Assembly (NCBI GenBank): GCA_012960505.1
Contig: DUBC01000014.1
Span: 16,759 to 80,758 of the forward strand
Origin: Verrucomicrobiales bacterium
GTDB taxonomy: Bacteria; Verrucomicrobiota; Verrucomicrobiia; Verrucomicrobiales; DEV007
DNA length: 64,000 nucleotides
Direction of reading: 5' to 3'
The position numbers and the translations under genes are program-made. Positions 24,423-35,798 of this stretch are shown here, in pieces. Each line of letters begins with the position of its first letter. The stretch's first letter is position 1. Below the pieces are notes generated by a model that saw only the letters and a program-made list of their open reading frames with translations, made no database searches and was not told where the DNA came from.

Positions 24423-27400
24423 TCAGACTGCTCGGTTGACCCATTCTTCTGCAATGTCTTTTAGGTTGAGAGACCGGTCATCTTCTCGATCAAAATATTG
24501 CTTTTCAACAGATGCAATGGATTCATTTAATTGTAATTGAACGTTTTCGGGAAAATCTTTTTTTTCATTAATTTTACGCAATAGGCCAAGAACAGAAAAA
24601 GGTGTAATTTCATTTGGAACATTAAAGTCGGCAATCTTTTCCTTGTTTCCTGAACTTGTCAGGCTTCGTCGTTTAAGTTTCACGGCTATTGCTCCTAGAA
24701 TAAGGACTACAAGTAGAGCCAATCCAATCCATTTTGAATTTTTCTGACCGTACCTTTGTTCTAAGAGAATGGTTTGACTAGTAGCAACTAAATCAGCGTC
24801 ATCATAACGCTGAAAAAGCATTTCCTTAGTTTCGGTTGCTTGTTCTGGAAAACTAAACTCAAGAGCAGAGTCATTTGCGGCTGTTTGTGTTTTTGTGAAC
24901 GTGAGTATCCAGTTCCTTTCAGTGATGGGACTTCCCTGTTTAGATTCTGCATCTAACCTAGCTATGGAAATCTCTCCCCCAGATGAATCGGTTCGGGTAA
25001 AGTTATCTAGGCTTGGCTTAAGTAATTGGTCTAGTTCTGGAACCAGGCCATTGGAGGAGGCTTTAACTTCAACTTTGAGAAGGCCCTGATCAGCTTCTCT
25101 CTCATCGAGTATTTGAACGATTTTAAGGTTTTCGGTGGGACGAGGGTCACCAATCTTGGGCTTAGAATCGATTGGAATTTGAGCAGTGGCTATTGGAAGA
25201 ATCACATATCCTCCAGTATCTAGAAAATCCAGATCAATCTGCATCGAAGGTATCTTGTCAACTTCAGGAGTGCGTGCCTTAAGTAAAACATATGCGTATG
25301 GCGTGACGCGCCATCCTTCTTGCCCTGCCCCTCTCGAAGTGACTTTGCTGTCGTGGAATGTAACTGACATAACATCGAAGTGTTCTGAAAGTGTTGAGCG
25401 GGTAATGCCCTCGAATTTCTCGCGATAATTCTGAGTTGGTCGACCATAGTTATAGGCGTAGCTGGAATTATTTTGATTTGTAAGGTATTTGGAGAAGCCG
25501 CCAGATTCGCGTTCTATTTCTTTGGTATGGCGAATGTCAACGAAGACTCCGAACGGTGATTCATGCCCGACAGTGCTTGAACCGTCGATCCTTGCCACGA
25601 GCTGGATTTCGGTAGTCAGGTCATTATAGTAATTAAATAGCTTTTGTGCTTCGCTAGCCTTTTCATGTTCACCGGCTATTGATAGGCCATGACGAAGATA
25701 ACGCTGTTTGAGTTCTGGTTTCACTGAACTGATCCTCGCTGCGAGAGCATTTGCAAAGCGGGCTAAGTGCCGCTCTGCGGATTTGTTAGGTAAACCGGCA
25801 AGAGCAGTTTTGATTTGTTCAATTTGTCGAGGAGCGGGGAGTTGTGTTTCGCGAAGTGCACTCAGATCACTTGCACCTAAGGCAGCGTAGAACCAGTGCT
25901 CAAAGGCTTCGGTCGTTTCTTCTTCCTCATTGTCAGGTGAAGTCGAGATGTATAGTTCAGCAGCCTTTGAGAACATTTCATAACTGTTCTTTCGATCGAT
26001 AGTATAAGTGGAGCTCTTTTTCGATTCCTGTTGGAAGTTGATTTTATCGAGTGCCAGACAGGCTCTTCGTAGATGGAGGCGCCAATCTTCAGGATTAGCT
26101 TCAATTGTTTTCCCCAGAATATCATCTATGCCTTCATATCCTGCTATTACTTCGGCAAGGATTTCATCATCTTTGCGTTTTGTCTTCGCATCTTGCTGTG
26201 TTTTAGGATCGCGCCAGACTGTCGCTAGGTTGACTCGCATAGTATTAGCTAAAGCTGCAACAGTTTTCGGGCTCATGTCCTTAAAGGTTCCGAACACTTT
26301 GGTGATCGCGGTCATTTTATATACCTCGGCACGGCTATGAATTTTAGTAAAGGCTTCGGCGAGCTTGTCCTGGTTAATTTCACCTATCGGTAAGGATTGT
26401 AATTTACCCACCCAATTAGCCAATTCGGTCAGGCTGCGTTCTTGCTTTGAGCGAGTTAGGGGGATGGAATTTGCTCTTTGATTATATCCATACATATAAC
26501 CGTACCGATAAGTACGGTTGCGATTCGCATTGGGGTTATGATTATCGGCCCAGACACGCAAAAATTCTTCGGCCAGACGTTTTCCGGTTTCGGGATAATT
26601 AGCAGAAACTTTCTGGATGTAAGGAAACGCTTCTTCCGGTTCGTTCACTTTAAGATATAGCTGAGCATATAGAGTAGAAAACTGTGGTTGCAGGTCATCA
26701 TCAATTTGACGGATCCAGTTTTCATTTGGGCGCACTTTGAGGAGTTCTCCGGAGGCGATTGGTCCGGGCACATTACCCGGAGTGGCTGTAGAATTCACTT
26801 TAGAGTTTTCGTAATACATGTTGCCGTACTGATCCCATCGCATTCTCGGACTAATTGTTTTTGATGCGTCCCGCTGATAGCTGTAAGAGGCTTCGGAGAG
26901 CCAATTCAAAGCAAGTATATTTAATATCTCGGACCACTCGTTGAGTTTAATTTCACTGATTTCAAGTAACGATTCTGTTGCAGTTTTTTGTAGAGTGAGT
27001 CGCCGAAGACGCGCAGAGGACGAAGGTTCTGATCTGCCGCTTGAGGTGAGGGCCCCAATCGTTGCAAGCACTTCACGACCAAGTTTAGCGTCTCCAGTGA
27101 AGCTTTCACTTAGCCATTGTGCTCCTTTTTCCTCTTCAACTTTAGGGGCAAGATCTACTGCCCTTTCAAGGGCAGACTCTTTACTTGCTTGAATAGTTTT
27201 TGGATTGGCTAGAATTAATTGAGTGGCTTTCCAGGCCAAGCCAAGATGCCCTTCTTTGGGTTCTTTTGCATGAAGAGCTAAATGATAATTTGCAATAATA
27301 TCGAGTTCATTGGGATCATCCGAATCATCGATCTTTGGCAGGAATTTTCCTGCTTCGGCTGCTAGTCCAGCACTGATTAGCAGTCTGGCTGCTGTCATGC

Positions 27401-28148
27401 GTTTTTTACTGTCACTGGAGCCGCCAATTTTTTTTGTTCCCTTTTCCAGTAAGGTAACAACGGTATCAGGAAAGTGACCCCGGGAGAGCGCTGTTTTCAA
27501 TAAACGTCCTAGCTTGGGTATTGTAGTTTTTTCATTGAGATCAACTGGACAGGCATCCCCTAAATATAGTATGTCTGTAGGAGAGAGGAGATGCTTTTCG
27601 GCATATGCCATGTTCCGCGGTGGCGACACTTTTCCGGGCGTTACACTTGCAGATGGTATCGTTCTTGTGGGTCTAATGCGTGGCGGTAACGCGAGAGTAT
27701 CTAACAGACTCAGGTAAGCCTTATTTGCGTTTTCGGTTTTTTTAAATTGAGATGAAAAAAAGTCCGCTACTCCATTCCAATTGCTCTTAGTTAGATTTTC
27801 AGCTAGTGACTCAATTGCAATGTCTGCTGCGCTTTTTGGCTGATTTGCAGTTCCCTTGTCCTTTTTGTCTTGGTCAATATTTCCTAAGTTTCTTAGAAGT
27901 GATGATGGTCGCCGATCAATCAATACCTTAGGAAGTTTTGCAAGGATAAGGGCATCAACATCAACGGGGCGAGGTTCTGGTTTTGCCGCATCTGTGGATG
28001 CATTTTTGGATGGGATTTGGTTGATAGGACCACTCAGAGTTTTTTTATTTTCGGACGGCGGTATGACTTTAGTGCCTCGATTTTGAGCTACTAAAAGTGA
28101 ACCAATGGATAACTGCAACGCGATACTTGTGAGGAAGAGTCGTCTCAT
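24423..28148 (-). CDS. large secreted, membrane-anchored protein of unknown function
   Basis: A 1241-residue protein beginning with a signal peptide (MRRLFLTSIALQLSIGSLLV). A long helical, TPR/HEAT-like body makes up most of it (for example RHLARFANALAARI), with two tyrosine-rich low-complexity patches (about residues 545-570 and 900-920, YRYGYMYGYNQ and SSYAYNYGR). A beta-rich region follows, then one membrane helix (KWIGLALLVVLILGAIAVKL near residue 1150) and an approximately 70-residue cytoplasmic tail. I recognise no catalytic motif. It is the last gene of the MoxR/VWA operon, and its ATG follows directly on a TAA in an upstream open frame. It may be a periplasmic scaffold for the VWA proteins. 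Confidence 0.75.
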   Translation of the reverse strand: MRRLFLTSIALQLSIGSLLVAQNRGTKVIPPSENKKTLSGPINQIPSKNASTDAAKPEPRPVDVDALILAKLPKVLIDRRPSSLLRNLGNIDQDKKDKGTANQPKSAADIAIESLAENLTKSNWNGVADFFSSQFKKTENANKAYLSLLDTLALPPRIRPTRTIPSASVTPGKVSPPRNMAYAEKHLLSPTDILYLGDACPVDLNEKTTIPKLGRLLKTALSRGHFPDTVVTLLEKGTKKIGGSSDSKKRMTAARLLISAGLAAEAGKFLPKIDDSDDPNELDIIANYHLALHAKEPKEGHLGLAWKATQLILANPKTIQASKESALERAVDLAPKVEEEKGAQWLSESFTGDAKLGREVLATIGALTSSGRSEPSSSARLRRLTLQKTATESLLEISEIKLNEWSEILNILALNWLSEASYSYQRDASKTISPRMRWDQYGNMYYENSKVNSTATPGNVPGPIASGELLKVRPNENWIRQIDDDLQPQFSTLYAQLYLKVNEPEEAFPYIQKVSANYPETGKRLAEEFLRVWADNHNPNANRNRTYRYGYMYGYNQRANSIPLTRSKQERSLTELANWVGKLQSLPIGEINQDKLAEAFTKIHSRAEVYKMTAITKVFGTFKDMSPKTVAALANTMRVNLATVWRDPKTQQDAKTKRKDDEILAEVIAGYEGIDDILGKTIEANPEDWRLHLRRACLALDKINFQQESKKSSTYTIDRKNSYEMFSKAAELYISTSPDNEEEETTEAFEHWFYAALGASDLSALRETQLPAPRQIEQIKTALAGLPNKSAERHLARFANALAARISSVKPELKQRYLRHGLSIAGEHEKASEAQKLFNYYNDLTTEIQLVARIDGSSTVGHESPFGVFVDIRHTKEIERESGGFSKYLTNQNNSSYAYNYGRPTQNYREKFEGITRSTLSEHFDVMSVTFHDSKVTSRGAGQEGWRVTPYAYVLLKARTPEVDKIPSMQIDLDFLDTGGYVILPIATAQIPIDSKPKIGDPRPTENLKIVQILDEREADQGLLKVEVKASSNGLVPELDQLLKPSLDNFTRTDSSGGEISIARLDAESKQGSPITERNWILTFTKTQTAANDSALEFSFPEQATETKEMLFQRYDDADLVATSQTILLEQRYGQKNSKWIGLALLVVLILGAIAVKLKRRSLTSSGNKEKIADFNVPNEITPFSVLGLLRKINEKKDFPENVQLQLNESIASVEKQYFDREDDRSLNLKDIAEEWVNRAV

Positions 28149-28326
28149 TTAACCAAGTCGGGAGAACTGATGTGGTTTGTAATTTGTACGTTGGGCAAGT
28201 CCTTCAGGATCACGATCCGATCCCGTCCGGTGGAGGAGCTTGGCCCGCGCCGCGAGAGTCAGCAGGCTTTTTACCGGTTTTACTTTTTCCGGCCCGACCG
28301 GGCCTGGTTCCGCTTCCGCAGCCCCG
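28149..28326 (-). pseudogene. out-of-frame coding-like tail of the TPR gene
   Basis: In the +1 frame relative to the TPR gene, 59 sense codons run from NDGAAEAEPGPVGPEKVKP to a TAA that abuts the next ATG. The frame has G-first codons and GC-rich third positions, which looks coding, but there is no convincing start codon of its own. The stretch is richer in G and C than the surrounding DNA. It is best explained as the end of the TPR protein separated by a one-base shift, either real or a sequence error. Confidence 0.45.
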
Positions 28327-28914
28327 TCATTGGCTAGGCAGAGGCAAGCCCTGAAGTTCATCCAAATCGATCCGCGCAAGTTTTATTGAGGCTTCAAGAT
28401 TTTCGACTAATTGATCGGCCGATTGCTGCTTCCCTTCACTCTTTGCAAATTCGGCAGCTGCATAATAATTTTGGCGTGATGATTCAATGACCGGTTCCCA
28501 CACTTCACGAGAGTGCCCTTCGAGCCTCATCAGCCAAGTAATGTAATACTGGGCATTGGCTAGAGTTGATTTTGTATCAGCTGCCAGCTGTGGTTCCGTG
28601 TTTTCATCTAGTGCTGATAACATTGAAAGAAGATCCTTATAAGCTTCCGGGAGTTGTGAGCACTGCATCTGTGCTTTGGCTTTTTCCAAGCGTAACCTGT
28701 TGTTTGTAGAAATATTCTCCTTTGGCAATAAACTGATCGCTTCATCAAACTCGATTACAGCTTCAGCAAATTCTTTATTCATTAAGTGCTTCTCTGCAAA
28801 ACCAATGTGTGTGGCTGCCTGATCAATTTTAATGCTTTGTTGCCCAGGACCAAAATGATAAGCCGCTGCACCAAGTGGAACGAGTAGCCAAATAAAGATG
28901 AAGAACTTACGCAT
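28327..28914 (-). CDS. membrane-anchored TPR-like protein of the VWA operon, apparently truncated
   Basis: A 195-residue product with an N-terminal anchor (KFFIFIWLLVPLGAAAYHFG) and helical TPR-like repeats (FAEKHLMNKEFAEAVIEFDE, then KAKAQMQCSQLPEAYKDL). It ends at a TGA (28327-28329) after LQGLPLPSQ. Shifting by one base at this point opens a proline/glutamate-rich frame that runs to a TAA immediately before the next gene's ATG, so I think the gene originally continued to 28149. Its place matches the TPR partner (BatC/BatE-like) seen in other MoxR/VWA operons. Confidence 0.75.
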   Translation of the reverse strand: MRKFFIFIWLLVPLGAAAYHFGPGQQSIKIDQAATHIGFAEKHLMNKEFAEAVIEFDEAISLLPKENISTNNRLRLEKAKAQMQCSQLPEAYKDLLSMLSALDENTEPQLAADTKSTLANAQYYITWLMRLEGHSREVWEPVIESSRQNYYAAAEFAKSEGKQQSADQLVENLEASIKLARIDLDELQGLPLPSQ

Positions 28915-28964: not shown

Positions 28965-31196
28965 CTAAACCTTTTTATTATGGAACAGCTTTAAAAGTGA
29001 GGGAAGTATAATGAGATCAGCAATGAGTGCTGTACTGAGTGTTGCGCAAGCAACTGCAGTGAAAGCGCGATACATAGGAAGTGAACTGAAAAGAACACTT
29101 CCCAGTCCGCAGAGCATGACAACCGTGGTAGCTATAAGGACCTGTCCTACACGCATAAAACTACATTCGAGGGCCTGATCGATATTGAGGCCATTTTTCC
29201 GTTCGGCCTGATAGCGGCTCAGGAAGTGGATTGCATCATCAGCAGCGATGCCGAGACAGATTGTGAAAGCACAAACAATTTCAAGAGATAGTGGTAATTC
29301 AAAGGCAGCAAGAACGGCAGCACATGCCAGCAGTGGAAATAGATTTGGAATCATGGCTATTAACCCAATCCGCAAAGAACGGTAGGCGATTGTTATCATG
29401 ATAAGGATGATAATGGCTGCGGCAGCGAGGCTACGGGCCAAATCATTAAGCATGCGATGGACATATCGCCCCCAACCGACAGCTCCTCCGGCCAATCCAA
29501 ACTTATAATCAGGATGTTTCTTACTCAGCTTCTGAAGTTTATTTTCTAATCTCTCATAGACGGGTGTGTATTGAGCGACCCCGAGGTCCTGTATCCGGGT
29601 AATGACGACTGCTTTTTTAAGGTCAGGACGGTAAAGAGGCTTAATTAAATCTGGAGGCGCTCGTTTCAAGAGCGGCATACGTAAAGAAAGATCTTTCCCA
29701 AGACCAGGCAGTGAGGAAAGTACCCCCCGTATCGATAAGGGTTGGCTTAAAAGTTTTTCCTCTTTAACCATTTCTTCAATGCTGGCAATGATAGGTACAG
29801 GGTCACTGTCATCGGATTCCCATTCGGCAACTATGCGGATGGCCTGTATTCCTCCTAGGCTTTTATCAGCCTCTATGAGTGCTGCTCCACTTTCGCTTTT
29901 GTCTGGCAGTTGATTGAGCAGATACATGTCCGGCTTAAGAGTCGAAGTTAGCCATCCAAAGAGAATTGTAAGAATAACAGAAACAGTTACCACCCACTTA
30001 GAGTGTTTAATGACAGATCTTATGAATTTCAGGAAAAATCCTTTTCCCGGGACCGAGTCTAATTGCAGAGATTTTTTGCCAGTTTCGATTTTGTGTTTGA
30101 ATGGTAACAGGCCAAGTAATGGTAATAAGAGAACCACAGCTATGAATGTGATCAGTGTGCCGACTGCACAGTCTCTTCCAAAATCACTAATCATGTTTGC
30201 TTCTGCAACGGTGAGGGAAGCAAATCCCGCGGCAGTCGTTAAAGCTGATAACATACATGGGAGTCCCAATTTACGCATTGAAGCAGCCATAGATTCTTTA
30301 GCACAAAACCCTTCGCTGAGCTCTCGACGAAACTGAAAAACAATGTGAGCGGCGTTAGTGAACCCAATCATGGTCAAGATGATGGGCATTATTACCATAG
30401 AGAGGCTATTGAGGCGTTCATTAGTGAAACCAAGCATTCCAATGGTCCAGAAGACGCCAACTGCGGGAGGCAAAGTGACTATTAGAGTCATCACTAAGCC
30501 GCGAAAAAATATAAGAGCAAGTATTACAGAAAGAACATAGCCTATGATTTGAAAGCGTAATTTTTCAGTTTTCATGGCATCACGACGGGCAATATCAATC
30601 GGAACTCTTCCGGTCAGTTTAACTTCCAGTTTTGAACCTTGTAGAGCCTTAGTGGCCTCAGCTCTAATGAGATTAAGAACATCACTAATCTTTTGATTTT
30701 TTGTCAGCTTTAAACTTAAAGGGACCAAAGAAGTTCGCGCGTCTGAAGACAATAAATTTCCCGCGACTATGGGATGATTTAGGGCCCTTTTCCGGCACGC
30801 CTTGCGTTTTGATTCAGAGTCATTTTTATCTGGAAACAAGGGCAACTTAAGTAGTCCAATTCCGTATGAAGGTATTTGATCAAAGCTGAATGCCCGAGAG
30901 ACGCTTGGAATTTTTCTTACCGCTTTTAATAGATTCTTATAAGATTGAGCAGTGCCCTTTTCAAACAAGTCACCATTGTCATCCCTATGAGTAATGAGTA
31001 TGAGAACCTCCGATCCGTCAGGCCCGAATTCACGGGTCACTTTTTTAGTAAATTCGTAATCAGTTTTTGTGCGGGAATTTTTAATATTACGATCTCCACG
31101 CTCAGATAAGTTTCCGTAAAAAGAAAAACCGCTGATAACTGCAAATAAAGCAATCGCTAACCATGGACGATGAACAGGGATTTCTGAAAATTTCAT
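28965..31196 (-). CDS. RND superfamily (MMPL-type) membrane exporter
   Basis: A 743-residue protein with the RND layout: one N-terminal helix, a large periplasmic loop (about residues 40-215), five helices (SVILALIFFRGLVMTLIV to VVLLLPLLGLL), then the same pattern repeated with a second loop and ITIAYRSLRIGLIAMIPNLF and GIAADDAIHFLSRY. The GLGIAADD-like DD pair in the second half is typical of MMPL and patched-like proteins. The substrate could be a lipid or hydrophobic compound. It overlaps the upstream VWA gene by 4 bp, so it belongs to the same operon, which is a less common partner for MoxR/VWA systems. Confidence 0.88.
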   Translation of the reverse strand: MKFSEIPVHRPWLAIALFAVISGFSFYGNLSERGDRNIKNSRTKTDYEFTKKVTREFGPDGSEVLILITHRDDNGDLFEKGTAQSYKNLLKAVRKIPSVSRAFSFDQIPSYGIGLLKLPLFPDKNDSESKRKACRKRALNHPIVAGNLLSSDARTSLVPLSLKLTKNQKISDVLNLIRAEATKALQGSKLEVKLTGRVPIDIARRDAMKTEKLRFQIIGYVLSVILALIFFRGLVMTLIVTLPPAVGVFWTIGMLGFTNERLNSLSMVIMPIILTMIGFTNAAHIVFQFRRELSEGFCAKESMAASMRKLGLPCMLSALTTAAGFASLTVAEANMISDFGRDCAVGTLITFIAVVLLLPLLGLLPFKHKIETGKKSLQLDSVPGKGFFLKFIRSVIKHSKWVVTVSVILTILFGWLTSTLKPDMYLLNQLPDKSESGAALIEADKSLGGIQAIRIVAEWESDDSDPVPIIASIEEMVKEEKLLSQPLSIRGVLSSLPGLGKDLSLRMPLLKRAPPDLIKPLYRPDLKKAVVITRIQDLGVAQYTPVYERLENKLQKLSKKHPDYKFGLAGGAVGWGRYVHRMLNDLARSLAAAAIIILIMITIAYRSLRIGLIAMIPNLFPLLACAAVLAAFELPLSLEIVCAFTICLGIAADDAIHFLSRYQAERKNGLNIDQALECSFMRVGQVLIATTVVMLCGLGSVLFSSLPMYRAFTAVACATLSTALIADLIILPSLLKLFHNKKV

Positions 31197-32176
31197 TTTT
31201 TAGTGTCCGAATTTGAGCGGATCCCGACACGCCATTGGGTACCAAAAGAATTTAATATCAAAGGGAGTGCAGTTAGGATCAGAGAAGATATTACTATCGC
31301 TATCAAAGCGTATTCTCGTCTGGTCATTTTTTCGATAGCACTTTTTTCCTCAACTGAAACAAGAGATGAAATCGTTTCGCTTGGGATATGCTTCACGTTT
31401 CCATCATGGTAAGTGCCATTCAGCCGTAACGCTATCTGCCTAAGAGTTGAAGCATCCTGTTTAGAGTTTTGGCCGTCCAAGAAGGTTCCCTTTATTGGGT
31501 TACCAACCCCAATAACTAATATTCCATTGACTGATCTTGGCATCTTTGGAATTCCTACAGAAGGAACAGTGTCACCGTCCGAAAGCAGAATAATCGTTGT
31601 GCTGTCTTGGCGCCATTGCCTAGAAATTTCGGCTGCAAGATTGAGCCCATCAAAGAGGTGAGTTTTACCGGCTTCAAATGCAGTATACATGTCCATGCCA
31701 TCAAGAAAATTTCGCACTACTTCTGCGTCCTTAGTATCCACAACTACCGGCTTTGCTCCATTATATACCGCAATCAGAGAAAGCCTCATTTGTTCGACTC
31801 TGACCCTCTTAAAGAACGATTCCATTAATTCAAAAACGCGTTCGCGCCTTCTCTTTACCCCGCCCTCACCGGCGTCTTTTATTTTCATGCTAGGAGACAC
31901 GTCGAGGACAATTACAATGTGCCGTATTTCATCAGGATCAACTGCCTTGGCTTTGTGAATCTTAGGCTGGATGGTTAGAAGAGTTGCAAGGCCCCAAATT
32001 CCTAAGGATACCGCCACACATCTTGTTGCCGGTGCTATTCGCGCCCATGATGAAGGAAGGGCCGAAGGACCAAAGGATAAGATCGCAATGTTTTTGATAC
32101 GGCGTGAATGTATCATCTCAGCTCCAATTGTAAGTACAAGAGCAGCCAGCGCTGAAATTTCCGGATTCACTACCAT
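31193..32176 (-). CDS. VWA-domain membrane protein (BatB-like)
   Basis: A 327-residue protein with membrane segments at the N-terminus and at the C-terminus (YALIAIVISSLILTALPLIL) flanking a von Willebrand factor A domain. The metal-ion-dependent adhesion site is intact: VVLDVSPSMKIKDAG gives DxSxS near residue 95, and ILLSDGDTVPS gives the later Asp. It overlaps the upstream VWA gene by 7 bp and the RND gene by 4 bp. The BatA/BatB proteins work with MoxR ATPases, probably in assembly or stress tolerance of envelope complexes. Confidence 0.85.
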   Translation of the reverse strand: MVVNPEISALAALVLTIGAEMIHSRRIKNIAILSFGPSALPSSWARIAPATRCVAVSLGIWGLATLLTIQPKIHKAKAVDPDEIRHIVIVLDVSPSMKIKDAGEGGVKRRRERVFELMESFFKRVRVEQMRLSLIAVYNGAKPVVVDTKDAEVVRNFLDGMDMYTAFEAGKTHLFDGLNLAAEISRQWRQDSTTIILLSDGDTVPSVGIPKMPRSVNGILVIGVGNPIKGTFLDGQNSKQDASTLRQIALRLNGTYHDGNVKHIPSETISSLVSVEEKSAIEKMTRREYALIAIVISSLILTALPLILNSFGTQWRVGIRSNSDTKK

Positions 32177-33090
32177 GGTGTATAACGTAAACCGAAGAGA
32201 CTCAGTAAAAACATTAAGGCTATAGAGGTTCCTGTCATCACATAGGGTTTAAAATTGTCCATCGACTCGGCACCTATCCTCTCGATTTTAGTTTTCTGCA
32301 TTTTGTCAATTCGAGTAAATATTGCTTTGAGGGCCGATGGGTCACCGGCTGCAAAGACTTCACCTCCGGTCCGATTAGTTATGGTTAATAACTGTGCTGG
32401 AGGCGATCCAGGAGCAATGTGAATGGCATATGTAGAAATATTATTAGCTATAAGTTTATTGGCTATCTCAATGTCTTTGCCTCCTCCAAGGTCAGCACTG
32501 TAACCGTCTGATAAAAGAATAATGAGGCGATCACCTTCTTCGCGTTCCACTAACAATTTGGAGCATTCTTCAAGGGCTAGACCGATTTTAGTTCCTCCTC
32601 TGAACCAGATAGGCAGGCGTGTCGGGCCTAAAAAGTCGGTTGCATATCCGAAGGCCGACGGGTCAGAAGTTAGATGGATCCAGTGCAAGAAATGATCACC
32701 AAAAACAGTTAATCCGAAAGCATCTTCTTCACGATAGTTAATAAATTCATTGATTGCTTCCATGGCTGCCTCGTAACGGTTCCCATCGCCAAAAGGCGCC
32801 GTCATGCTGCCGGACACATCAAGAGCAAATTGAATATTGGTTAATTTTTTTTTAGTTTTTGGATCAGAGAGTTGTTGAGGTCCTGCCAGTAGAAGTACCG
32901 CAATTGCTAACAACAAGGCTGGTAATGAGGCAGTCATTTTAAGTATGTATTCCCATAGTCGATTTCGGGTCATTAGCGATTCATCTACGGGAATCACGAC
33001 CTGATGGCCATTGCCATTTTTGCGCCAGATCCAAAACAGTAACGCGGCCGGAATCGCAAGCAATATGAGGACTGGGGAGTGGGCAAACAT
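32170..33090 (-). CDS. VWA-domain membrane protein (BatA-like)
   Basis: A 306-residue protein with the BatA plan: two N-terminal helices (PVLILLAIPAALLFWIW, then PALLLAIAVLLLAG), a VWA domain with a full MIDAS (FALDVSGSMTAPFG, GGTKIGLALEEC and ILLSDGYSADLGG) and a C-terminal helix (SIALMFLLSLFGLR). It is paired with the next VWA gene, overlapping by 7 bp. Gene order after MoxR and DUF58 matches aerotolerance (Bat) operons known from Bacteroides and Leptospira. Confidence 0.88.
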   Translation of the reverse strand: MFAHSPVLILLAIPAALLFWIWRKNGNGHQVVIPVDESLMTRNRLWEYILKMTASLPALLLAIAVLLLAGPQQLSDPKTKKKLTNIQFALDVSGSMTAPFGDGNRYEAAMEAINEFINYREEDAFGLTVFGDHFLHWIHLTSDPSAFGYATDFLGPTRLPIWFRGGTKIGLALEECSKLLVEREEGDRLIILLSDGYSADLGGGKDIEIANKLIANNISTYAIHIAPGSPPAQLLTITNRTGGEVFAAGDPSALKAIFTRIDKMQKTKIERIGAESMDNFKPYVMTGTSIALMFLLSLFGLRYTPW

Positions 33091-33112: not shown

Positions 33113-33904
33113 TCAGTCAATTTTTGGTTCGCGGTAAGGCTTGAGAAGAGCATCTAAATCAGAAGGCTCTTCTGGATTTGGACAATGGAACCAAGACTCA
33201 AGTTTTTCAAACAGCGGTGCCGCTTCTGGGTGCGCTTTAATTTTAGATAGTGCCGTGCTAGGCGATTCATTCGTGAGATTCATCCGTTGTCTCCAAAAAA
33301 TAATAAGTGTTCTTTCTAGCCTTGCTTGACCTTCCTTTCCAAGTTTTCCTTTTCTGGCAGCTTCTACCAGAGGTCGTAAAATTTCTGCTGGGCTGAGCAG
33401 CTCAGGACTAGAAGACTCCATCAAGTTCAATTTTTTACGAGCACCAAATATTAGTAATAAGAATCCTATTAACCAGAAAGCAGCTCCGAAAATCAATAGA
33501 TGTTTGTATTTTATGAAACGAGGCAATTTTCCATCGTCTGGTGGGTTAGGCTTCATCCGTTCTGGTGCTAAGGATGATTTGAACGTTACCGGCAGAGTAG
33601 GCGGATCAGTCATTGGTTTTTTATCCTTGCCTTGTAAATAATCGCCTAGGTCAAAGGATCCTGCTTCTAGCCCATAATATTCAAAATCGTATCGGAAAGA
33701 GTTACCATGCGGATAAACTGATGTGATACGTAAGACAATAGCTGATTCTTTGTTCAGAGGCTTGGGTTCTACTTCAGGACCTGGAATGACGTAATCTTTT
33801 ATTTGTATCTTGATACCAAGAGGTGCGGCTTCCTGCTTCAGCTCATTGGCTATGAGGTAGGGAAGGGTAAAAGATAAGATGCCAATAAATAGTGATCTTT
33901 TCAT
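33113..33904 (-). CDS. BatD-like single-pass membrane protein
   Basis: A 263-residue protein with a signal peptide (SLFIGILSFTLPYLIANEL), a periplasmic beta-rich region (about residues 25-140), one membrane helix (LLIFGAAFWLIGFLLLIFGA near residues 137-156) and a helical cytoplasmic domain with many charged residues (ILRPLVEAARKGKLGKEGQ). The architecture resembles BatD or DUF4381-type proteins that sit between DUF58 and VWA genes in Bat operons, though it is shorter than most BatD. It starts 2 bp after the DUF58 stop. No enzymatic motif. Confidence 0.6.
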   Translation of the reverse strand: MKRSLFIGILSFTLPYLIANELKQEAAPLGIKIQIKDYVIPGPEVEPKPLNKESAIVLRITSVYPHGNSFRYDFEYYGLEAGSFDLGDYLQGKDKKPMTDPPTLPVTFKSSLAPERMKPNPPDDGKLPRFIKYKHLLIFGAAFWLIGFLLLIFGARKKLNLMESSSPELLSPAEILRPLVEAARKGKLGKEGQARLERTLIIFWRQRMNLTNESPSTALSKIKAHPEAAPLFEKLESWFHCPNPEEPSDLDALLKPYREPKID

Positions 33905-33906
33905 GG

Positions 33907-34776
33907 CTAGCGTGCTCCTCGACTAAGTACAGCGCGAGATTTAAAGAAATGACGTAACTTATGCGCTATGGGTTCATTGGTGAGAAGTTGTAAGTAATCA
34001 ATGCCAGACTTCTTTAGCTCTTCAGCAATGAATTTAGAATCAGTGAGTTTGACTTTGTTTTTTGTGATTCCTGTGATTCCTGTTTCAGCTTCTCTTGTTT
34101 TCACGAATCCAGCACCTTGTATCCCTGATTCTATTGGATCAATCAGCTGCAGAGCAACGCAATCATGTTTTTGTGCTGCGAGTTTGAGTGCCGGCATGGC
34201 TGTAGAATCGTGCAGATCCGATATGACAATAATCATAGATCGGCTCGTTAAAATTGGCATAAGCTCGGCCAGGCGAGAACCAACGCGGGTTGGTTCATCG
34301 ACACGATAGGATCGTAGTTTAAGTAGCCATTGCAGTATGCGGTCAGCAGATAGACTTGGCCTTACAAATAAATCACGTCCCCCCGCTCCGATCACTCCGA
34401 CCGGACTTATCCGATCCAGTGCGGCGAATGCGATTCCTCCAGCGATTCTTATGGCCGATGCATACTTACTAATATTTGTAGAAGTAACTGTCATCGAAGC
34501 GGATGTATCGATGAGCAAGTAAATGGGCATTTGTTTCGGAGCTTCGTATTCCTTAACGTGAAACTTTCCTGTGCGGGCAGTGACTTTCCAATCTATTGAT
34601 TTGATTGGATCACCAATCTGATACGCTCGTGATTGTACATATTCTATACCAGATCCGAGGAACGTAGATCGATCGCTACCGTATCCTATGTCATCGGCCA
34701 ATTTCTTTATTGCGATGATGAATTGTCGCGAGTCAATTGGATCACAGGAATCGAGGAAATTTTCAGTCATTTGCAC
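33907..34776 (-). CDS. DUF58 domain protein of the MoxR/VWA operon
   Basis: A 289-residue soluble protein. The N-terminal part shows the DUF58 signature: YQIGDPIKSIDWKVTARTGK, followed by HVKEYEAPKQMPIYLLIDTS. That continues into an A-domain-like DTSASMTV motif and IIVISDLHD, so it is a VWA-like fold carrying a MIDAS-type DxSxS. DUF58 proteins are constant partners of MoxR ATPases and are thought to be their substrates or adaptors. It follows MoxR by 44 bp and is 2 bp ahead of the BatD-like gene. Confidence 0.88.
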   Translation of the reverse strand: MQMTENFLDSCDPIDSRQFIIAIKKLADDIGYGSDRSTFLGSGIEYVQSRAYQIGDPIKSIDWKVTARTGKFHVKEYEAPKQMPIYLLIDTSASMTVTSTNISKYASAIRIAGGIAFAALDRISPVGVIGAGGRDLFVRPSLSADRILQWLLKLRSYRVDEPTRVGSRLAELMPILTSRSMIIVISDLHDSTAMPALKLAAQKHDCVALQLIDPIESGIQGAGFVKTREAETGITGITKNKVKLTDSKFIAEELKKSGIDYLQLLTNEPIAHKLRHFFKSRAVLSRGAR

Positions 34777-34820: not shown

Positions 34821-35798
34821 TTATCCCATAGTTTTTAGAATGTCTTCTAAGACATCTATAGTATTCATGCCTTCGGCTAAAGCTTCATAATTAAGACGCA
34901 TGCGGTGCAGGAGGACATCCTCAGCCAACGCAAACAAATCTTCAGGTATTGCGTAGTCTCGCTCATGAATGAGTGCTCGTGCCCGTGCACCTTTAATGAG
35001 GGCTATGCCAGCTCTGGGGCTTGCTCCGAGTTCAATGTGCGAATGATTCCGGGTCCGACTAACGAGCTCGACGACATGTTTAATGAAGACTTCGCTAACA
35101 TGAATCTTGTGTACGGCATCAATCACAGATATTAAGTCATTGGCTTCTCCGACAGGATCTTCGGAAACAATATCAAATTCAGTGTTAGCTACTGCCCCTC
35201 CTCCTTCTTTTTGAATACCAAGATTCAAGTTCCTGGTTAATATTTCTTCTTCTTCGACTGGAGTTGGATATTGGAGCCGATGACATAACATGAATCGATC
35301 GAGTTGAGCTTCGGGCAATTCAAATGTACCACTTTGTTCGATGGGATTTTGTGTTGCAATAACGAGGAAGGGCACAGGAAGACGATACGTATTGTCTCCT
35401 ATGGTAACTTTGCGTTCTTGCATTGCTTCTAGTAGTGCTCCTTGAACTTTTGGAGCTGCGCGATTTATTTCATCTGCAAGTAGAAGGTTAGTAAATACGG
35501 GACCTTTGTGTGTAGTGAATTGTCCACTTGCCTGGTCAAGAATTTCAGATCCGAGGATGTCCGATGGCAATAGATCGATCGTAAATTGAATTCTTGAGAA
35601 CTCTAAGTGAATGGCTTTGCCAAGGGCATTTACTAAAAGAGTTTTTGCGAGTCCTGGCATCCCTTGGAGCAGAATATGACCGCTTGTGAAGAGAGCAATG
35701 AGCAAGCGTTCTACAACGACATTTTGTCCAACAACGACATTTGATATCTGTTCACGGATTGCTTGAATGTAAGATGCGTGATTGTTATAACTAACCAT
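34821..35798 (-). CDS. MoxR family AAA+ ATPase
   Basis: A 325-residue ATPase with Walker A GMPGLAKTLL near residue 40, Walker B LLLADEINRA near residue 105, sensor 1 (LVIATQNPIEQSGTF) and the lid domain with ASPRAGIALIKGARARAL. MoxR proteins act as chaperone-like ATPases that use VWA partners to insert metals or assemble complexes. This is the first gene of an eight-gene operon ending at 24423. No ribosome binding site is visible before the ATG (cctgccctagtaaa). Confidence 0.95.
   Translation of the reverse strand: MVSYNNHASYIQAIREQISNVVVGQNVVVERLLIALFTSGHILLQGMPGLAKTLLVNALGKAIHLEFSRIQFTIDLLPSDILGSEILDQASGQFTTHKGPVFTNLLLADEINRAAPKVQGALLEAMQERKVTIGDNTYRLPVPFLVIATQNPIEQSGTFELPEAQLDRFMLCHRLQYPTPVEEEEILTRNLNLGIQKEGGGAVANTEFDIVSEDPVGEANDLISVIDAVHKIHVSEVFIKHVVELVSRTRNHSHIELGASPRAGIALIKGARARALIHERDYAIPEDLFALAEDVLLHRMRLNYEALAEGMNTIDVLEDILKTMG

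What the first reader, a model, noticed from the sequence alone, without database searches (positions are those of the whole stretch)
28149..28380. Probable frameshift separating the TPR protein from its tail in the VWA operon
The TPR frame stops at 28327, but a one-base shift there opens a coding-like, GC-rich frame of about 59 codons. That frame ends in TAA directly before the ATG of the next gene, which is the expected operon junction. The stop is TGA followed by C, the poor-termination context also seen at programmed +1 sites. Possible explanations are a sequence error, a mutation, or true recoding.
Basis: partly seen in the sequence, partly recalled or inferred. Interest (0 to 1): 0.5.

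Follow-up and report, generated by a model that had tools for sequence, protein, structure and literature searches.

The report
Hidden selenium-containing protein in stress operon
What looked like a broken bacterial gene is most likely an intact one whose internal stop codon is read as the rare amino acid selenocysteine, revealing a selenium-containing protein in a stress-linked operon.

Summary
The stop at 28327-28329 is real, but there is no frameshift. Frame 0 continues past the TGA for 38 codons to a second stop at 28210-28212.

The TGA is most likely selenocysteine (Q-U-x-G-C):
- All 17 homologues in the window's family carry exactly one in-frame TGA.
- Nine homologues with Cys at the site lie in genomes without SelA above cut-off; three more diverged Cys forms do have SelA.
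- The window's genome has tRNA-Sec, SelA, SelB, and a SelD with its own in-frame TGA.
- A hairpin with a GGUC loop follows the TGA in 41 of 44 TGA genes examined and in 0 of 9 Cys genes, with compensatory stem changes.

The protein is a membrane helix, a TPR-like domain and a flexible tail, in a MoxR-DUF58-VWA-VWA operon resembling the Bat aerotolerance operon. Planctomycete relatives share it, some with two in-frame TGAs. It is not in a 2026 inventory of 119 selenoprotein families or in NCBIfam. Selenocysteine decoding is strongly supported by comparison; no protein was measured. The redox role is inferred. Haft and Tolstoy 2025 was not held.

The parts
28210..28914 (-). whole selenoprotein gene, 234 codons read through UGA196, plus stop TGA
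   Evidence: homologues over the full length
28327..28329 (-). UGA codon 196, most likely selenocysteine
   Evidence: in-frame TGA in 17 of 17 family matches, TGC in five relatives
28213..28326 (-). 38-codon tail RGCGSGTRPGRAGKSKTGKKPADSRGAGQAPPPDGIGS in frame 0
28289..28307 (-). SECIS-like hairpin CC(A)GGCCC[GGUC]GGGCCGG; loop starts 27 nt after the UGA
24423..28148 (-). downstream gene, 1241 aa, no Pfam match; follows the TPR gene in relatives
28965..31196 (-). MMPL/RND-type membrane protein, in the operon only in near relatives
31193..32176 (-). VWA protein 2 (BatB-like)
32170..33090 (-). VWA protein 1 (BatA-like)
33113..33904 (-). 263-aa protein, no Pfam match
33907..34776 (-). DUF58 protein
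34826..35774 (-). MoxR AAA ATPase (stretch scanned; exact ends not set)

Best explanation
The gene at 28914..28210 (-) encodes a 234-residue selenoprotein. UGA at codon 196 is decoded as selenocysteine by SelB and tRNA-Sec, directed by a hairpin with a GGUC apical loop starting 27 nt after the UGA. The product has an N-terminal membrane helix, an all-helical TPR-like domain and a flexible C-terminal tail with the motif Q-U-x-G-C. It is a steady partner of a MoxR/DUF58/VWA/VWA module that resembles the Bat stress operon. Shown by computation: conserved in-frame TGA, conserved coding tail, Cys at the site in relatives, hairpin with covariation, machinery in the genome, operon. Inferred: that Sec is really inserted, that the tail faces the periplasm, and that the U-x-x-C pair (U...U in some planctomycetes, C-x-C or C-x-x-C in Cys forms) does thiol/selenol redox chemistry for the operon's membrane complex under oxidative stress.
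For: Frame-0 tail under purifying selection, variable sites 4/3/29 by codon position. Exactly one in-frame TGA in 17 of 17 family matches, also G107; 31 planctomycete genomes with one or two TGAs. TGC at the site in five relatives and Cys in four planctomycetes. Own genome: tRNA-Sec 61.2 bits (ARAGORN), SelA (22), SelB (21), SelD with in-frame TGA (23), all over cut-off. SelD over cut-off in 18 of 18 TGA carriers and 1 of 11 others; SelA 14 of 18 versus 1 of 11 and, in planctomycetes, 31 of 31 versus 3 of 11. GGUC hairpin in 41 of 44 U genes, 0 of 9 Cys genes, 42 of 4100 shuffles; 94.3% of cells paired, 28.6-45.7% when slid. Operon in relatives. Structure model.
Against: No protein or selenium was measured. 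Five of 18 TGA carriers lack a tRNA-Sec of 55 bits or more (G001, G002, G004, G184, G113; completeness 53-88%); SelA is over cut-off in only 3 of the 5 planctomycete genomes. Three diverged Cys forms (G643, G630, G664) lie in genomes that do have SelA, and G030 has the machinery but no U. The 71-nt fold around the UGA prefers another structure, and the selD hairpin of the same genome does not put GGUC in the loop in its best fold (-9.1 versus -7.2 kcal/mol). In four two-TGA genes the first UGA is 39 nt from the loop, outside the published 16-37 nt. TPR fold rests on a moderate model; Pfam TPR_2 only E 0.25, Foldseek best E 2.8e-3. The redox role has no direct evidence.
Confidence: 0.93

Rival explanations
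1. Programmed +1 frameshift at the TGA makes a C-terminal extension in the shifted frame.
For: The shifted frame is open for 59 codons and ends just before the next ATG; it is open for 42-134 codons in all 18 TGA homologues.
Against: Differences in the stretch are synonymous in frame 0, not in the shifted frames; the frame meets the next ATG in only 2 of 18.
Confidence: 0.01
2. Sequence error or recent mutation broke a longer gene.
For: None beyond the single window.
Against: The same TGA, at the same place, in 17 of 17 family matches from separate assemblies and in many planctomycetes.
Confidence: 0.01
3. The UGA is read through, but by a near-cognate tRNA (leaky stop) or a reassigned code, not as selenocysteine.
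For: A conserved in-frame tail needs only read-through.
Against: UGA ends this gene and three neighbours; relatives have Cys at the site; the Sec machinery goes with the TGA; a SECIS-like hairpin is conserved.
Confidence: 0.04
4. Selenoprotein, but the Cys/Sec tail binds a metal ion or cluster for the operon rather than doing redox chemistry.
For: Several Cys forms are Cys-rich, such as QCKCKGCCNGVC and QCNGCCSGKC.
Against: The single-U forms of the main type mostly keep one further Cys (UxxC) or a second U, which looks more like a redox pair. Not tested.
Confidence: 0.3

Closest known systems
Bacterial selenoproteins as a kind (Table 1 of PMC13188914, 119 families or subfamilies)
   Same: In-frame UGA with Cys homologues, downstream stem-loop within the published model, UxxC motif, Sec machinery in the genome
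   Different: No listed family is a TPR-like protein of a MoxR/VWA operon; NCBIfam has no model that reaches its cut-off on P0001, L094 or L097 proteins
Bat (Bacteroides aerotolerance) operon: MoxR, DUF58, VWA and TPR genes
   Same: MoxR, DUF58 and two VWA genes in a row, with a TPR-like gene after them
   Different: No BatD match in Pfam; TPR only by weak fold match; a 1241-aa unmatched protein follows; selenocysteine tail, which the passages read in PMC11834572 do not mention
Double selenoproteins listed in PMC13188914 (for example MbdU, TsoB with UxxxxU)
   Same: Some planctomycete relatives have two in-frame UGAs a few codons apart before one hairpin
   Different: Different protein family as far as names and domain ids tell (not compared by sequence); the second U stands where single-U forms have the Cys of UxxC

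Membership tests
Bacterial selenoprotein | in-frame UGA with a conserved coding tail | tested here: met
Bacterial selenoprotein | Cys at the same site in some homologues | tested here: met
   TGC in G025, G131, G115, G110, G080; Cys in G672, G884, G766, G823
Bacterial selenoprotein | SECIS: loop 3-9 nt with G in the first two places, upper stem 4-16 bp, 16-37 nt from UGA, <= -7.5 kcal/mol (PMC13188914, section 5) | tested here: met
   window: GGUC loop, 5 bp plus 2 bp below a bulged A, 27 nt, -12.2 kcal/mol; covariation; four relatives at 39 nt fall outside
Bacterial selenoprotein | SelA, SelB, SelD and tRNA-Sec in the genome | tested here: met
Bacterial selenoprotein | selenium in the protein | not testable with these tools
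   needs 75Se labelling or mass spectrometry
Bat operon | MoxR, DUF58 and VWA genes together | tested here: met
   neighbourhoods (MoxR looked for in the window only)
Bat operon | TPR protein (BatC/BatE type) | tested here: inconclusive
   Pfam TPR_2 E 0.25; Foldseek TPR domains among top hits, none at E <= 0.001
Bat operon | BatD | tested here: not met
   no Pfam match for the 263-aa or the 1241-aa protein; a diverged BatD is not excluded

The most novel reading that the evidence does not exclude
A selenoprotein family missing from current inventories makes a Bat-type MoxR/VWA membrane complex selenium-dependent in Verrucomicrobiota and Planctomycetota: a membrane-anchored TPR-like scaffold holds a flexible tail with one or two selenocysteines as a mobile redox arm. 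The poorly understood chemistry of Bat operons would then be a specific selenol/thiol exchange at the cell envelope.
Probability: 0.35. Interest if true: 0.78.

Novelty: new member of a known kind. Interest (0 to 1): 0.62.

Why it matters
Standard ORF calling ends this gene at the UGA, so a conserved reactive motif in a stress-linked operon is hidden. Recognising it adds a candidate selenoprotein family spanning two phyla, with single-U, double-U and Cys forms that largely follow the presence of the machinery, and it gives MoxR/VWA (Bat-type) operons a concrete reactive residue to test.

Tried and rejected
Mobile GC-rich insert: the 196-base stretch has no second copy in the genome (best other match E 0.196) and relatives carry it too. 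Known RNA family: Rfam at E <= 10 gave five matches, all far below gathering scores. +1 frameshift and sequence error. UGA reassignment: UGA ends this gene and three neighbours. Viral contigs and plasmids: no relatives. Literature listings showed me no paper on a TPR or MoxR/VWA-operon selenoprotein; each lists at most 25 papers. PMC13188914: sections 5 and 7 (parts 1-2 of 3, with the whole Table 1) and passages read. PMC9312934, PMC12013277, PMC5029168, PMC2398784, PMC11834572: passages only. PMC4807772: section 17 and passages; its selenoprotein table S9 was not seen. 'Hypothetical protein GOS_A' of PMC2398784 could not be compared, its figure not being held.

Rows dropped before counts: of 55 matching planctomycete genomes, 13 with weak matches (best E 1.6e-7 or worse) were not taken into. 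Only the 30 best matches have loci, so the hairpin count covers 3 of the 12 CU-type genes (L130 was missed by my pattern), and the CU motif was read in 4 of 12. The 9 Cys genes leave out the three diverged Cys forms L127-L129. L111 and L112 code identical proteins (as far as the tree used them) and L113 a nearly identical one, so the 41 are not independent.

Full report
What was claimed. Both are in the sequence: ORF 28914..28327 (-) ends in TGA, and the shifted frame DGAAEAEP...FSRLG ends in TAA just before the ATG at 28148.

What is there instead. The ORF matched 12 of 37 related genomes. Frame 0 after the TGA reads RGCGSGTRPGRAGKSKTGKKPADSRGAGQAPPPDGIGS and stops at 28210-28212, and this frame-0 tail recurs in relatives; in G025 the TGA is TGC, LPKQ-C-KNCKSG. 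Among seven same-genus homologues the tail has 4, 3 and 29 variable sites at codon positions 1, 2 and 3; summed over pairs of sequences, codon differences are 273 synonymous and 50 non-synonymous in frame 0, against 17/309 and 26/296 in the shifted frames.

Distribution. The read-through protein P0001 matched 12 of 387 genomes of the phylum and 17 of 74 of the family; all 17 hold exactly one in-frame TGA, and G107, of another family in the order, does too. Of the other homologues, five have TGC at the site (G025, G131, G115, G110, G080) and six have neither U nor Cys there (G030, G122, G136 with a Cys nearby; G411, G426, G515); one further match (G422, E 9.6e-4) was set aside. Genome contigs gave 11 loci from 106 candidate stretches: six Verrucomicrobiales or Verrucomicrobia MAGs, five planctomycete MAGs. 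All five planctomycete loci have two in-frame TGAs: QUQGTUSG in L094, L096 and L097, QUAGU in L095, QUKGSGTU in L098. A scan of 343 genomes around G581 (the genome of L094) gave 55 matches; 31 of these genomes have TGA, 19 of the main type (4 with two TGAs) and 12 that score like the four whose motif, C-U, was read. Some genes are Cys forms (G672, G884, G766, G823; diverged: G643, G630, G664).

Machinery. The own genome has tRNA-Sec (61.2 bits; ARAGORN tRNA-SeC(tca)), SelA about 1.5 kb further on the contig, SelB and SelD with its own in-frame TGA, all over cut-off. Of the 18 TGA carriers, SelD is over cut-off in 18, SelA in 14, SelB in 12, and tRNA-Sec at 55 bits or more in 13; 55 bits is my threshold, since the family's cut-off of 47 is passed by 134 of 239 genomes and by 5 of 14 control genomes. 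Of the 11 non-TGA homologues each protein is over cut-off in one, G030; the three f44 genomes were not in the tRNA search. In the planctomycete set SelA is over cut-off in 31 of 31 TGA carriers and 3 of 11 others, the three being the diverged Cys forms. Of the five genomes of L094-L098 it is over cut-off in 3, a fragment below it in one, absent in one. Thus nine Cys-form genomes lack SelA over cut-off and three have it.

SECIS hairpin. In the window CC(A)GGCCC[GGUC]GGGCCGG starts its loop 27 nt after the UGA and folds at -12.2 kcal/mol, 6 of 200 shuffles as good. A GGUC-loop hairpin of at least 3 bp, 15-40 nt after the UGA, occurs in 41 of 44 U genes examined (40 with 4 bp or more, 35 with 5 or more), at 18, 21, 27, 33 or 39 nt; the other three are CU-type genes whose fold has a hairpin with GUU in the loop. 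It occurs in 0 of 9 Cys genes and 42 of 4100 shuffles. The loop Gly codon is GGT in 41 of 41 against 77 of 371 other Gly codons (2 of these unread); since hairpins were picked for that loop, this is partly built in. In genes with two UGAs the second lies 18-21 nt from the loop, the first 27-39 nt (from the sequences). On 23 hairpins (21 distinct) all five pairs change on both sides; 94.3% of cells pair, 28.6-45.7% when slid; 0 of 500 shuffles reach the percentage paired, the cells changed on both sides or the covariation score, 7 reach the number of pairs changed on both sides and 37 the number of further pair types. The window meets the model quoted in PMC13188914. Contrary points: the 71-nt fold around the UGA prefers another structure, and in selD of this genome CCCGGUCGGG follows the UGA with its loop at 17 nt, but the best fold pairs it differently, -9.1 against -7.2 kcal/mol.

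Protein and operon. AlphaFold2 on 11 sequences: mean pLDDT 75.4, helices between 2 and 187, tail 192-234 below 50, so residue 196 lies in a flexible tail. Foldseek: best E 2.8e-3, none at 0.001, TPR domains among the top hits with other helical proteins such as 14-3-3. Upstream genes are MoxR, DUF58, a 263-aa protein, two VWA proteins and an MMPL protein; downstream a 1241-aa protein without Pfam match. In 22 neighbourhoods the 1241-aa gene follows in 21, the second VWA precedes in 21, the first VWA is seen in 20, DUF58 in 18, the 263-aa gene in 18 and MMPL in 3; L083 lacks the upstream genes in over 9 kb, and L096-L098 are cut by contig ends. Sec and Cys forms share the order. On a quick tree of 63 rows the U label needs 5 changes, at least 3 by well-supported branches.

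Function. Passages of PMC11834572 tie Bat operons with MoxR, DUF58, VWA and TPR genes to oxidative stress in other bacteria. A U-x-x-C, U...U or Cys-rich tail on such a partner suggests thiol/selenol redox work at the membrane; metal binding stays open. This step, and the orientation of the tail, are inference.

Novelty. Table 1 of PMC13188914, read in full, names no such family; NCBIfam gives no match over cut-off for three members; the listings show no paper on it. Haft and Tolstoy 2025 and Haft 2023 are not held, though that table cites both and tabulates families from them. I file it as a new member (family) of a known kind.

Noticed in passing
L068 (G000:C2:143520-144446): SelD of the window's genome is itself a likely selenoprotein (in-frame TGA, CG-U-AAK), with CCCGGTCGGG just downstream, the same core as in the window's hairpin, though its best fold differs.
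   Followed up: partly
L130-L133 and eight further genomes without loci: A second subfamily has the motif LPGG-C-U-QGSG and another hairpin (GUU loop); all 12 genomes have SelA over cut-off.
   Followed up: partly
L094-L098, L111-L113: Two in-frame TGAs in one gene, 3 to 6 codons apart, before a single hairpin: candidate double selenoproteins.
   Followed up: partly
window 28965-31196: An MMPL/RND-type gene stands inside the operon only in the window's genus and one sister genus (3 of 22 surveyed neighbourhoods besides the window).
   Followed up: no
L058, L061 (G018, G214) and L104 (G581): In the quick tree two genomes of the window's family group with a planctomycete (support 94), suggesting gene transfer between phyla or misbinned contigs.
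   Followed up: no
L127-L129 (G643, G630, G664): Diverged Cys forms (such as LPKDCSCNCNNLSQRKR) in genomes that do have SelA.
   Followed up: no
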